From the NCBI RefSeq assembly GCF_900110455.1, contig NZ_FOIS01000001.1, positions 310,001 through 374,000 on the forward strand: a DNA stretch of 64,000 nucleotides, given 5' to 3'. Shown one piece after another: positions 30,953 through 35,124 of this stretch. The stretch comes from Natrinema salifodinae (GTDB lineage Archaea > Halobacteriota > Halobacteria > Halobacteriales > Natrialbaceae). A program made the translations under genes and the position numbers. Positions within the stretch are counted from its first letter, which is position 1; every line of letters begins with the position of its first letter. The notes beneath the pieces are model-generated. The model did no database searches. It was given only the letters and a program-made list of their open reading frames with translations, and was not told where the DNA came from.

Positions 30953-30972
30953 ACACCGGGTTTCCGGTGAAA
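30953..30972 (-). repeat. ORB-like element behind orc1
   Basis: ACACCGGGTTTCCGGTGAAA, i.e. on the minus strand TTTCACCGGAAACCCGGTGT, identical to the best copies of the main origin cluster. It lies between the M24 peptidase stop and the orc1 stop, about 1.4 kb from the nearest cluster element. Confidence 0.8.
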
Positions 30973-31089
30973 TGTCGGAGGATTGCCGACTGAGGTGTCC
31001 GATCTGACAGGTCAGTCGGATCGCGGAAACGCGGTTCAGAACGCTCCGAGTACTGGTATTGCCGGTTGACGGCGCTCTGGTGACCGGAC

Positions 31090-31159
31090 GGATCACCGTT
31101 CCCAGTTATGGATCACCGTTCACAGTCACGGATCGCCGCGCCTGGTCACGGCTCACCGG
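31090..31159. repeat. Degenerate 20-bp tandem repeat at the orc1 3' end
   Basis: Units GGATCACCGTTCCCAGTTAT (31090), GGATCACCGTTCACAGTCAC (31110) and GGATCGCCGCGCCTGGTCAC (31130), with a partial GGCTCACCGG at 31150. The last unit covers the orc1 stop codon (31146-31148). Confidence 0.65.
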
Positions 31160-32351
31160 TTTCGACCAGGACCTTCCGCACTACTTCAGGGTCCTCCAGT
31201 AACTGGTGTTCGGTGTAGCTGCCCTCCGCGCTGCCGCCGCTCCGGCGGGTCTGCTCTAAGATGTCGAGGAAGGCGTGTTCCTTCAGGAGATCGCGAACCC
31301 GTCGCAGCGAGAGCGGGTCGGAACTCTCCTGGCGACAGATCTCCTCGTAGACATCGTAGATTCTGGTCGTCCGGAACCCGTCCTCGTCGGGCGTGTTGAG
31401 CGAGAGCACCGCAAGCGCCTGAAGGACGTACCGTGAGTGGGGCGTCGAACCGCGGATGAGCTCCCGGAAGCGATCAGTCTCGGCCCGCTCGCGGGCCTGG
31501 ACGACGAACTCCTCGCGGACGGTCTCGCTGCCCTTCGACTGGGCGATCTCGCCGGCGTACCGGAGGATGTCGATCGCCTTCCGCGCGTCGCCGTGTTCGC
31601 GTGCGGCCAGGGCGGCGGCGCGGGGGATCACCGACGGCTCGAGAACGCCGTCCTTGAACGCGTCGCTGCGGGCCTCCATGATGTCCCGCAGTTGGGTCGC
31701 GTTGTATGGCGGGAAGACGAACTCGCGCTCGCAGAGGCTGGACTTGACGCGCTCGTCCAGTCGGTCCTTGTACTTGATCTTGTTACTGATTCCGATGACA
31801 CCGATTTTACACGATTCGAGCTTGCCAGCCTCGCCCGCGCGCGAGAGTTGCATGAGGATGTCGTCGTCGTCGAGCTTGTCGACCTCGTCTAAGATGACGA
31901 GCACGACGTCGTACTGGGAGTCGAGCACCGTCCAGAGGCGCTTGTAGTACGTCGAGGTGCTGAGCCCCTTGTCGGGAATCTTCACGTCGGTCATCGCCGG
32001 CTCGTTTAACGTGTGGGCGATCGTCTGGACGGCCTGGGTCTCCGTGTTGTCCTGCGCGCAGTCGACGTAGGCAAAGGCCGAGGTGATGCCCTCGTCTTCC
32101 GCGACGCGAACGAGCCGCTCGGAGATGTACTTCGCACAGAGGGACTTGCCCGTCCCCGTCTTGCCGTAGATGAGGAGATTGCTCGGACTCTGTCCGAAGA
32201 TTGCGGGGTTGACCGCGTTCGCGAGTTCGGAGATTTCGTCGTCCCGGCCGACGATCCGACCCTCCTCGGGGAGGTGATTGATCTCGAGTAGCTCCTTGTT
32301 CTCGAAGATCGGATCGTCGCGAGTGAACAGGTCGTCGCCGGAACTCGACAT
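31146..32351 (-). CDS. orc1: Orc1/Cdc6 replication initiator
   Basis: 401 residues from ATG 32351. An AAA+ ATPase of the archaeal Orc1/Cdc6 family: Walker A IYGKTGTGKSLCAKY (61-75), Walker B VLVILDEVDKLDDD near 149-162, sensor 1 in VIGISNKIKYKDRLDERVKSS, sensor 2 Arg near ARKAIDILRYAGEIA, and a C-terminal winged helix (about 300-390) that reads ORB DNA. Its start codon lies 8 bases from the first ORB element and the cluster fills the upstream 1 kb, the usual pairing of an initiator with its own origin. Autoregulation through the elements at 32359 and 32553 is likely (inference). Convergent with the M24 gene. Confidence 0.95.
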   Translation of the reverse strand: MSSSGDDLFTRDDPIFENKELLEINHLPEEGRIVGRDDEISELANAVNPAIFGQSPSNLLIYGKTGTGKSLCAKYISERLVRVAEDEGITSAFAYVDCAQDNTETQAVQTIAHTLNEPAMTDVKIPDKGLSTSTYYKRLWTVLDSQYDVVLVILDEVDKLDDDDILMQLSRAGEAGKLESCKIGVIGISNKIKYKDRLDERVKSSLCEREFVFPPYNATQLRDIMEARSDAFKDGVLEPSVIPRAAALAAREHGDARKAIDILRYAGEIAQSKGSETVREEFVVQARERAETDRFRELIRGSTPHSRYVLQALAVLSLNTPDEDGFRTTRIYDVYEEICRQESSDPLSLRRVRDLLKEHAFLDILEQTRRSGGSAEGSYTEHQLLEDPEVVRKVLVETGEP

Positions 32352-32358
32352 GAATGGA

Positions 32359-32378
32359 ACACCGTGTTTCCGGTGAAA
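32359..32378 (-). repeat. ORB 1
   Basis: Minus strand TTTCACCGGAAACACGGTGT, eight bases from the orc1 ATG; may also overlap the orc1 promoter. Confidence 0.85.
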
Positions 32379-32552
32379 TAGCCTTTCCGTTTGGCGTCGC
32401 AGCCGCGTGCGTCGAACCGAGACACCGTCTCGCGGCCGTCAACTGCCGATTCGACGGCGTAGTTCAACTCGAACGGACCGCCTGGTCGGGAGAGCGAGTC
32501 GAGAAGCGGCCACGGAGACAGACGTTCACAAATATACACGACCACAGACACA

Positions 32553-32572
32553 CACCGCATTTCCGGTGAAAG
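32553..32572 (-). repeat. ORB 2
   Basis: Minus strand TTTCACCGGAAATGCGGTGT, two changes in the central spacer from the commonest form. Confidence 0.8.
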
Positions 32573-32614
32573 GCGGGGAACAGTGGGGGAACGTCCAGTT
32601 GAAATGGCGGTTCG

Positions 32615-32634
32615 ATTCACCGGAAACCCGGTGT
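32615..32634 (+). repeat. ORB 3
   Basis: ATTCACCGGAAACCCGGTGT followed by GGGG, the G-string typical of haloarchaeal ORBs. Confidence 0.85.
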
Positions 32635-32764
32635 GGGGACAGTAGCAGAACAGAGCGTCACGAACAGAATTCGGCTCGCGAGACGTTGTGGCCCGTCTGG
32701 TCGACCGGTACTCGGTCTCGACTCCCGTCGAGACTTAGAACCTCGATTTACCCAATGGACTGTA

Positions 32765-32812
32765 CTCACATTTACTACTAATATATTCCTATAGAGATGA
32801 AGTATGTGGAGT
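32765..32812. other. Likely DNA unwinding element
   Basis: AT-rich stretch between ORB 3 and ORB 4, with ACTACTAATATATTCCTATA in its middle, contrasting with GC-rich flanks. Confidence 0.65.
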
Positions 32813-32895
32813 GTCGCCATGGTCGATTCGAGCGGGTGCCGGTCGATCGAGTGTGCTCCCGTCATCCTTCCCGATCAGGAGTTGGTCTTTCGAAA

Positions 32896-32915
32896 CTTCA
32901 CCGGAAATCCGGTGT
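32896..32915 (+). repeat. ORB 4
   Basis: CTTCACCGGAAATCCGGTGT, first element right of the AT stretch. Confidence 0.85.
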
Positions 32916-32958
32916 GTGGCTCGGTAGTTCGACCGCTCCTTTTCCGCGATCTGTCCTC

Positions 32959-32978
32959 TTTCACCGGAAACCCGGTGT
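32959..32978 (+). repeat. ORB 5
   Basis: TTTCACCGGAAACCCGGTGT followed by GGG; the consensus form, as at 33317 and 30953. Confidence 0.88.
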
Positions 32979-33076
32979 GGGTGTTCTCGAATCCCACACC
33001 GAACCGTAGTTCGACGGCCGATCACATCCCCGATCGGTACGCTACCGGCCGCCGGCTGGTCGGAATCGTCCGTGTC

Positions 33077-33096
33077 GTTCACCGGAAACACGGTGT
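33077..33096 (+). repeat. ORB 6
   Basis: GTTCACCGGAAACACGGTGT, same spacer as ORB 1. Confidence 0.85.
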
Positions 33097-33170
33097 GTCT
33101 GCACGTCGTCCCTCGCTGAGCCCGATCCGTGACGAATATCCCCTGTCGAGTTCTCCGATCGCCATTCGCG

Positions 33171-33190
33171 ATACACTGGAAATTCGGTGT
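33171..33190 (+). repeat. ORB 7 (degenerate)
   Basis: ATACACTGGAAATTCGGTGT; differs from the consensus at several positions, so binding may be weaker. Confidence 0.6.
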
Positions 33191-33230
33191 TTGCGGGCGG
33201 AATTCTTTCGGTGGTCTCGGTCGTCGCATC

Positions 33231-33250
33231 GTTCACCGGAAACGTGGTGT
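33231..33250 (+). repeat. ORB 8
   Basis: GTTCACCGGAAACGTGGTGT; two spacer or arm changes. Confidence 0.8.
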
Positions 33251-33316
33251 GTCCGCCGGCGGTTCCCGCACAACCGTTCTCCGACGCGCGATATCCGAGG
33301 AATCCCATCGATCGGA

Positions 33317-33336
33317 TTTCACCGGAAACCCGGTGT
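33317..33336 (+). repeat. ORB 9
   Basis: TTTCACCGGAAACCCGGTGT followed by GG; rightmost element of the cluster. Confidence 0.88.
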
Positions 33337-33960: not shown

Positions 33961-35124
33961 TCAGACCGCGTACGTGACCTCGTCGAACTCGAAGAACGCC
34001 GTCTCGTAGCCGTCGTGCCGGGAGACCTGCGGCGGGGAATCGACGGTGACCGTCACGCGGTCGTCGTCCGCGAGGTCCTCAACGACGAGTCCGTAGTGGT
34101 GGCCGAACTCGCCGTCGAGCGTCTCCGCGAGCGTTTCCTCTCGGACGATCGAGCCGTCGCGCTCGACGGTGGCGGACAGGGACGTAAACGGGAGGATGAT
34201 CTCGTTGTAGGGCGTTCTGGGACAGACCGCCAGGTACGACCCGTCGGTATCGGCGTCGGTAAACCGATTCGCGTCCGCGACGAACGTCGCGAATTTCGCG
34301 TCGCCGCTGCGGTCGGTGCCGAGGTGTTCGCCGGGGAGGTCCTCGATCGCGGGCTCTCGTCCCATCGGCCGCTGCCCGTGCTCGTCGCCATGTCCGTCAC
34401 CGCCGTGTCCGGAGCCGTTGTCGTGACCGCCGTCGCCGCCGTCGCCGTGTTCCATCAGCGGGAGCGCATCGCGGCTGCCCCGCCGCTCCTTGTCGATCGT
34501 TTCGAACGAGAGGTCGTGGACGGCCGATCGCTCGTACTCGAAGTCGACCTCGAGCGTTCCCATCGACTCCAGGCGTCCCTCGAACGCGCCGGTCCGGTCG
34601 ACCCGCGAGACGGGGCCGACCTGCACGCGGGCCGTGTACTCGCCCTCGCCGGGGAGGCGGACGTTGTCGCCGTAGTGAAAGCCCATCCGCTGGGAGAGCA
34701 TCGGCCACGGCGAGGAGATACCGGTGTCGACCATCGATCCGTCCTGTAGAATATCGAGGCGCATGTCCACCGGAAGGACGGTGTGGGTCTCCCGGTCCCA
34801 GACGGTGAGCATGAGGTGGAGGCTGTCGTCGGCGTCGACCTCGACGAGTTCCTTGCCCTCGTCGACGGCTTCCACGATCCAGAACCGGTGAGGGAACGTG
34901 TACGAGAGCGCGACGCCGTAGTCGCCGTCGGTCGCCGTGCCGTAGGTCCCCATCTCCTCGCGGGAGGCCGGGAGGTAGACGGCGTCGGGGCGGTTCTCAA
35001 CGAGCGGCGGGTTCGCCCAGGCCGATTCTTCTTCGAAGCCGAGTCGCTCGAGACAGCCGGCGGTGCCGACCGTTCCGGCGGCTCCGACTGCGGCCGTGCC
35101 ACGGAGGAAACCCCGGCGATTCAT
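33961..35124 (-). CDS. Tat lipoprotein with His-rich stretch (DUF7350, iron-transport P19/Tp34-like)
   Basis: 387 residues from ATG 35124. The signal NRRGFLRGTAAVGAAGTVGT has a twin-arginine motif and ends in the lipobox TAGC with Cys24, so it is anchored outside the membrane. Residues ~45-215 form a beta-sandwich resembling P19/Tp34-type iron-binding proteins (DYGVALSYTFPHRFWIVE; THTVLPVDMRLDI). A His/Gly/Asp stretch, HGDGGDGGHDNGSGHGGDG near 235-253, looks like a metal buffer. A second beta domain (about 285-380) follows. It is divergent from sco-tlpA-ccdA. I infer a metal-binding surface protein of a copper or iron handling locus. Confidence 0.8.
   Translation of the reverse strand: MNRRGFLRGTAAVGAAGTVGTAGCLERLGFEEESAWANPPLVENRPDAVYLPASREEMGTYGTATDGDYGVALSYTFPHRFWIVEAVDEGKELVEVDADDSLHLMLTVWDRETHTVLPVDMRLDILQDGSMVDTGISSPWPMLSQRMGFHYGDNVRLPGEGEYTARVQVGPVSRVDRTGAFEGRLESMGTLEVDFEYERSAVHDLSFETIDKERRGSRDALPLMEHGDGGDGGHDNGSGHGGDGHGDEHGQRPMGREPAIEDLPGEHLGTDRSGDAKFATFVADANRFTDADTDGSYLAVCPRTPYNEIILPFTSLSATVERDGSIVREETLAETLDGEFGHHYGLVVEDLADDDRVTVTVDSPPQVSRHDGYETAFFEFDEVTYAV

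What the first reader, a model, noticed from the sequence alone, without database searches (positions are those of the whole stretch)
30953..33336. Complete oriC1-type origin with ten ORB elements around an AT stretch
Ten elements close to TTCACCGGAAACCCGGTGT lie in and around a gene-free region before orc1. Left of the AT stretch (32765-32812) two point to the minus strand and one to the plus strand; to the right six point to the plus strand. This inverted arrangement and the initiator beside it match active haloarchaeal origins. One plus-oriented element (32615) breaks the symmetry and may tune initiation, and several elements have a G-string. Spacer variants (CCC, CAC, ATG, TTC, GTG) suggest different affinities.
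Basis: partly seen in the sequence, partly recalled or inferred. Interest (0 to 1): 0.75.

Follow-up and report, generated by a model that had tools for sequence, protein, structure and literature searches.

The report
Megaplasmid-type archaeal replication origin beside orc1
A salt-loving archaeon (a Natrinema relative) carries, next to an initiator gene, an ordered array of ten initiator-binding boxes that is almost certainly a DNA replication origin; it is not the universal chromosomal origin oriC1 but an accessory origin of a type that elsewhere runs whole megaplasmids.

Summary
The ten boxes are real: 11 matches in the window against 0.12 expected, and 9 of the genome's 10 exact matches lie within 2.4 kb. 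The locus is an Orc1/Cdc6-linked origin, but not oriC1. The universal oriC1 initiator of this genome is on another contig, occurs in 116 of 116 haloarchaeal genomes, and has classic G-string boxes beside it. The window's initiator is an accessory type in 52 of 116 genomes. The array goes with that initiator: all 55 orthologous loci have boxes, no 53-57% paralogue locus does. On 8 of 11 complete plasmids (94-378 kb) it is the only Orc, with its boxes. A 112-kb stretch around it matches plasmid pHTUR04 gene for gene in rearranged blocks. The Natrinema J7 counterpart replicated a plasmid weakly (39 cfu/ug, PMC5350488). Corrections: the plus box at 32616 does not break symmetry (the array diverges from 32571-32615); only one box has a GGGG run; one box abuts the orc1 start codon. 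New detail: a conserved G-rich element with an oriC1-like core (32594-32610) between the two inverted boxes. Known kind, with testable refinements.

The parts
31146..32351 (-). orc1/cdc6 initiator gene, 401 aa, accessory family (not the oriC1 initiator)
   Evidence: TIGR02928 443 bits, Cdc6_lid, Cdc6_C; orthologue in 52 of 116 genomes
30953..30971 (-). box past the orc1 stop codon; possible titration site (clusters of up to nine in relatives)
32359..32377 (-). box directly before the orc1 start codon; candidate operator for autorepression, position kept in all loci
32552..32570 (-). left box of the inverted central pair
32571..32615 (+). 45-nt spacer of the inverted pair, G-rich; axis of the divergent array
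32594..32610 (+). conserved core TCCAGTTGAAATGGCGG (family consensus TCCAGTTGAAACGGGGG), like the oriC1 box core
32616..32634 (+). right box of the inverted central pair; the only box followed by GGGG
32765..32812 (.). AT stretch (69% A+T), candidate duplex-unwinding element
   Evidence: the AT peak lies in the corresponding gap in 48 of 55 loci
32897..32915 (+). distal array, box 1
32960..32978 (+). distal array, box 2
33078..33096 (+). distal array, box 3
33172..33190 (+). distal array, box 4 (degenerate, two mismatches)
33232..33250 (+). distal array, box 5 (one mismatch)
33318..33336 (+). distal array, box 6

Best explanation
This is an Orc1/Cdc6-dependent accessory replication origin: an initiator gene with its own cognate binding array, a replicator-initiator cassette of a type found on many megaplasmids, which sits on the main chromosome in the genus Natrinema. 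Inferred mechanism: the encoded Orc binds the 19-nt boxes. The divergent arrangement (all boxes point away from 32571-32615) sets opposed Orc assemblies on either side of the AT stretch at 32765-32812, where the duplex opens and MCM is loaded. The box that touches the orc1 start codon lets Orc repress its own gene. The box past the stop codon, a larger cluster in relatives, soaks up surplus Orc. Shown here: box array, orientation, linkage to this Orc family, presence as the only Orc with its boxes on several plasmids, AT peak position. Inferred: binding, unwinding, autorepression, titration. Whether it fires in this chromosome or is weak or dormant is open.
For: Cluster is unique in the genome. 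All 55 orthologue loci have boxes; none of the paralogue loci (53-57% identity) has. All 52 genomes with the orthologue have at least five box matches; of 64 without, one does, and part of its array lies at a contig start. Divergent polarity is perfect in 44 of 56 loci against 7.4 expected. AT peak in the gap of the array in 48 of 55 loci against 25.9 expected. Only Orc on 8 of 11 complete plasmids, with the boxes on the same record; one plasmid read in full shows no other annotated replication initiator. The J7 counterpart (ARS-3, primers matched) gave 39 cfu/ug in a plasmid test (PMC5350488).
Against: Weak plasmid replication in J7 (39 against about 2000 cfu/ug for the best fragments). GC skew is inconclusive. 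Boxes mostly lack the G-string that was essential in Haloarcula oriC1 (PMC3936714). No binding or replication data for this organism. Some predicted haloarchaeal origins are dormant (PMC4595724).
Confidence: 0.86

Rival explanations
1. It is the ancestral chromosomal origin oriC1.
For: Same overall layout: boxes around an AT stretch next to an orc gene.
Against: The universal initiator (116 of 116 genomes) and classic G-string boxes are on contig C4; the window Orc is in 52 of 116 genomes and often on plasmids.
Confidence: 0.02
2. The array is a true origin by descent but dormant or nearly silent in this chromosome, kept as a backup or as a relic of an integrated megaplasmid.
For: Weak ARS activity of the J7 counterpart (PMC5350488); dormant origins are documented in Haloferax mediterranei (PMC4595724); plasmid-like surroundings.
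Against: Boxes, start-codon operator, inverted pair and Orc are kept intact throughout Natrinema, which suggests use.
Confidence: 0.4
3. The boxes serve mainly to regulate the orc1 gene and to titrate its protein, not to start replication.
For: A box sits at a fixed place by the start codon in all loci; downstream clusters resemble the titrating oriC2D of Haloarcula hispanica (PMC3936714).
Against: Does not explain the divergent polarity around an AT gap or plasmids with this as the only Orc.
Confidence: 0.07

Closest known systems
Predicted orc-adjacent origins of Haloterrigena turkmenica pHTUR04 and Natrialba magadii pNMAG01 (Wu et al. 2012, PMC3528665, Table 1)
   Same: Orthologous Orc (92% and 79%), same boxes; for pHTUR04 the same gene neighbours. 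Table 1 counts all Orc genes of these plasmids as origin-associated.
   Different: Here on a chromosomal contig; the published box lists (supplement) could not be read, so it is not known which boxes were drawn.
Natrinema sp. J7 oriC5/oriC6, fragment ARS-3, vector pFJ3 (PMC5350488)
   Same: Reverse primer matches N. gari L089 at 22 of 23 bases, forward primer 18 of 24; the gap between oriC5 and oriC6 is 1206 bp, the length of this orc gene.
   Different: Weak activity, 39 cfu/ug; anatomy was not dissected there.
Haloarchaeal oriC1 (Haloarcula hispanica oriC1-cdc6A, PMC3936714)
   Same: Inverted boxes around an AT-rich stretch; G-rich tract just inside a box.
   Different: Different Orc family, different box, mostly no G-string; more boxes. 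The genome's own oriC1 is on C4.
Haloarcula hispanica oriC2 with downstream box cluster oriC2D (PMC3936714)
   Same: Boxes both upstream and downstream of the initiator gene.
   Different: One downstream box here against 11 there; titration is untested here.

Membership tests
Haloarchaeal oriC1 | Initiator is the Orc1 conserved in all haloarchaea | tested here: not met
   Window Orc in 52 of 116 genomes; the C4 Orc in 116 of 116
Haloarchaeal oriC1 | Boxes carry the extended G-string | tested here: not met
   GGGG after 1 of 10 boxes; 26 of 490 across the family
Haloarchaeal oriC1 | AT-rich stretch between inverted boxes | tested here: met
Archaeal orc1/cdc6-adjacent origin | Intergenic region directly next to an orc1/cdc6 gene | tested here: met
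Archaeal orc1/cdc6-adjacent origin | Inverted repeated boxes specific to the neighbouring Orc family | tested here: met
Archaeal orc1/cdc6-adjacent origin | Orc binds the boxes | not testable with these tools
   needs binding assay
Archaeal orc1/cdc6-adjacent origin | Origin activity (plasmid replication or replication peak) | not testable with these tools
   only indirect: J7 counterpart 39 cfu/ug (PMC5350488); only Orc on 8 of 11 plasmids
pHTUR04-type megaplasmid origin | Orthologous Orc, same boxes, shared gene neighbourhood | tested here: met

The most novel reading that the evidence does not exclude
The conserved G-rich element between the inverted boxes (32594-32610) is a docking site for the universal oriC1 initiator Orc1, so that this accessory origin is built by two different Orc proteins and is coupled to oriC1. 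Its consensus core TCCAGTTGAAAC resembles the oriC1 box core (TCCAGTCGAAAC) more than the family's own box. If so, the view that each haloarchaeal origin depends only on its neighbouring initiator would need revision.
Probability: 0.13. Interest if true: 0.65.

Novelty: new member of a known kind. Interest (0 to 1): 0.36.

Why it matters
It corrects an oriC1 label, ties a chromosomal origin to a family that also runs megaplasmids, and gives a clear comparative anatomy: start-codon box, inverted pair with a near-fixed gap, conserved G-rich core, AT gap, distal array. It shows a widespread haloarchaeal box family that mostly lacks the G-string used as a selection rule in earlier origin searches. 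It also makes testable whether a megaplasmid-type origin fires within a chromosome.

Tried and rejected
oriC1 membership: rejected. An early guess that the C3 Orc (L018, best profile score) was the oriC1 initiator: rejected, E <= 1e-120 in only 57 of 116 genomes. GC skew over 400 kb as origin evidence: inconclusive; the cumulative maximum is at C1:282.7 kb, not here. Viral source of the Orc: no match in the phage collection. Literature search for the box sequence: no relevant paper. Direction of transfer (plasmid into chromosome, or the reverse): not decided. No structure prediction was run; family membership of the protein is not in doubt.

Full report
What is there. A 19-nt element TTCACCGGAAAYNCGGTGT occurs ten times between 30953 and 33336: minus strand at 30953, 32359 and 32552; plus strand at 32616, 32897, 32960, 33078, 33172 (two mismatches), 33232 (one mismatch) and 33318. 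With up to three mismatches the window holds 11 matches against 0.12 expected. In the whole 4.27-Mb genome there are ten exact matches to TTCACCGGAAANNNGGTGT, nine of them here, and none to the reversed control pattern.

The initiator. The gene at 31146-32351 (minus) encodes a 401-aa Orc1/Cdc6 protein with the Cdc6 lid and C-terminal winged helix; its best solved relative is Sulfolobus Cdc6 homologue 1 (that 2qby is from Sulfolobus is from my own knowledge). The genome has about 13 orc1/cdc6-like genes, several with inverted box-like repeats of their own and of other sequence.

Not oriC1. Published work defines oriC1 by the initiator conserved in all haloarchaea (PMC3528665). In 116 genomes of the class, the initiator on contig C4 is present in all 116, and beside it lie boxes CTCCAGTCGAAACGAAGGGGTGGGGG and CTCCACTTGAAACGAAGGGGTGGGGG around an AT-rich stretch. 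The window initiator has an orthologue of at least 78% identity in 52 of 116. It is therefore an accessory origin family.

Linkage of box and initiator. In 55 named loci with an orthologue (73-97% identity) every one has at least two boxes near the gene, and all but one (L086, two boxes) a larger set; in the loci with 53-57% paralogues there are none. Among the 116 genomes, all 52 with the orthologue have five or more box matches. Of the 64 without it only G103 does; two of its boxes and a one-mismatch copy sit within 0.9 kb of a contig start, so the gene may be cut off by the assembly. Counts for this comparison were read off the two tables by hand.

Anatomy. If the axis is placed between 32552 and 32616, all minus boxes are left and all plus boxes right. 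Over 56 loci, 44 show perfect divergent polarity (7.4 expected at random) and 357 of 369 boxes agree; the inverted pair recurs with a gap of 43-54 nt. In 48 of 55 loci the most AT-rich 40 nt of the array lies in the longest gap that follows a minus box (in the frame of the orc gene), against 25.9 expected from gap length. One box starts 21-39 nt before the orc start in all loci. Boxes past the orc stop are common and reach nine copies in one Halorientalis plasmid.

No G-string. Only the box at 32616 is followed by GGGG, and 26 of 490 boxes in the family have one. The 3' flank tends to GTGTGT. The G-string was a selection rule in earlier origin searches (PMC3528665) and was essential in Haloarcula oriC1 (PMC3936714). 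Even so, pHTUR04 (3 of 3) and pNMAG01 (1 of 1) Orc genes were listed there as origin-associated, so this family was probably seen; the supplementary box lists could not be read.

A conserved element in the middle. Between the inverted boxes the window has AGGCGGGGAACAGTGGGGGAACGTCCAGTTGAAATGGCGGTTCGA. The core is present in 22 of 26 representative loci, 22-24 nt from the box, with family consensus TCCAGTTGAAACGGGGGTT. It is the only such match in the window (0.04 expected). It resembles the oriC1 box core and the G-rich tract inside the Haloarcula oriC1 boxes (PMC3936714). The loci are related, so part of this conservation is shared descent. Anchored identity near the core reaches 0.57-0.70, against about 0.3 on the gene side of the same box beyond its first ten bases. 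That a second initiator binds it is speculation.

Function. On 8 of 11 complete plasmids examined (94-378 kb) this Orc is the only one over the family cut-off, and boxes are found with it. The 94-kb plasmid was read in full and shows no other annotated replication initiator; the annotation may be incomplete. In Natrinema sp. J7, fragment ARS-3 matches this locus: reverse primer 22 of 23 bases, forward 18 of 24, implied length 3157 against 3167 bp. It replicated a plasmid, but weakly: 39 cfu/ug against about 2000 for others (PMC5350488). GC skew does not decide.

Genomic setting. The window's closest relatives are Natrinema (97% Orc identity). In same-genus genomes G005 and G091 this gene and the oriC1 gene lie on one contig about 1.2 Mb apart, so it is chromosomal there. 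Yet window 10.0-121.6 kb matches plasmid pHTUR04 gene for gene in rearranged blocks, and the orc neighbours (peptidase, trehalose synthesis, SCO, TlpA, CcdA) are the same. The orthologue is on plasmids in many genera. Integration of a megaplasmid into the chromosome fits; the reverse is not excluded.

Verdict. A real accessory origin of a known kind; the oriC1 label, the G-string and the broken symmetry are corrected. Whether it fires in this chromosome needs a replication profile.

Noticed in passing
window 10013-64000 and on to C1:431646: About 112 kb of the contig matches the 172-kb plasmid pHTUR04 of Haloterrigena turkmenica gene for gene in rearranged blocks; smaller matching blocks lie at C1:155-163 kb and 233-263 kb. 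Points to an integrated megaplasmid or an excised one elsewhere.
   Followed up: partly
L148 (pHOS100 103439-104239); NZ_CP095483 19936-20789: Two Halorientalis plasmids have a second divergent array of five boxes away from the orc gene; on pHOS100 it lies between a trehalose-6-phosphate synthase and a PadR gene, with no orc beside it.
   Followed up: partly
C1:158314-158332 (L001): The only other exact box in the genome; it lies about 0.8 kb past a glutamine synthetase gene that is itself in a pHTUR04-like block.
   Followed up: partly
window 34766-34784: A box-like sequence inside the neighbouring DUF7350 gene, also seen in plasmids as TTCACCGGAAGGACGGTGT; probably kept for the peptide it encodes.
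   Followed up: no
plasmids NC_013747 (110966), NZ_CP084320 (90591), NZ_CP019328 (59043): A single box about 7.6 kb downstream of the orc recurs on three plasmids but not in the window.
   Followed up: no
L020, L021, L022, L023, L024, L026: Other orc genes of this genome have their own inverted repeats of different sequence, several ending in GGGGTGT, so the genome has many candidate origins.
   Followed up: no
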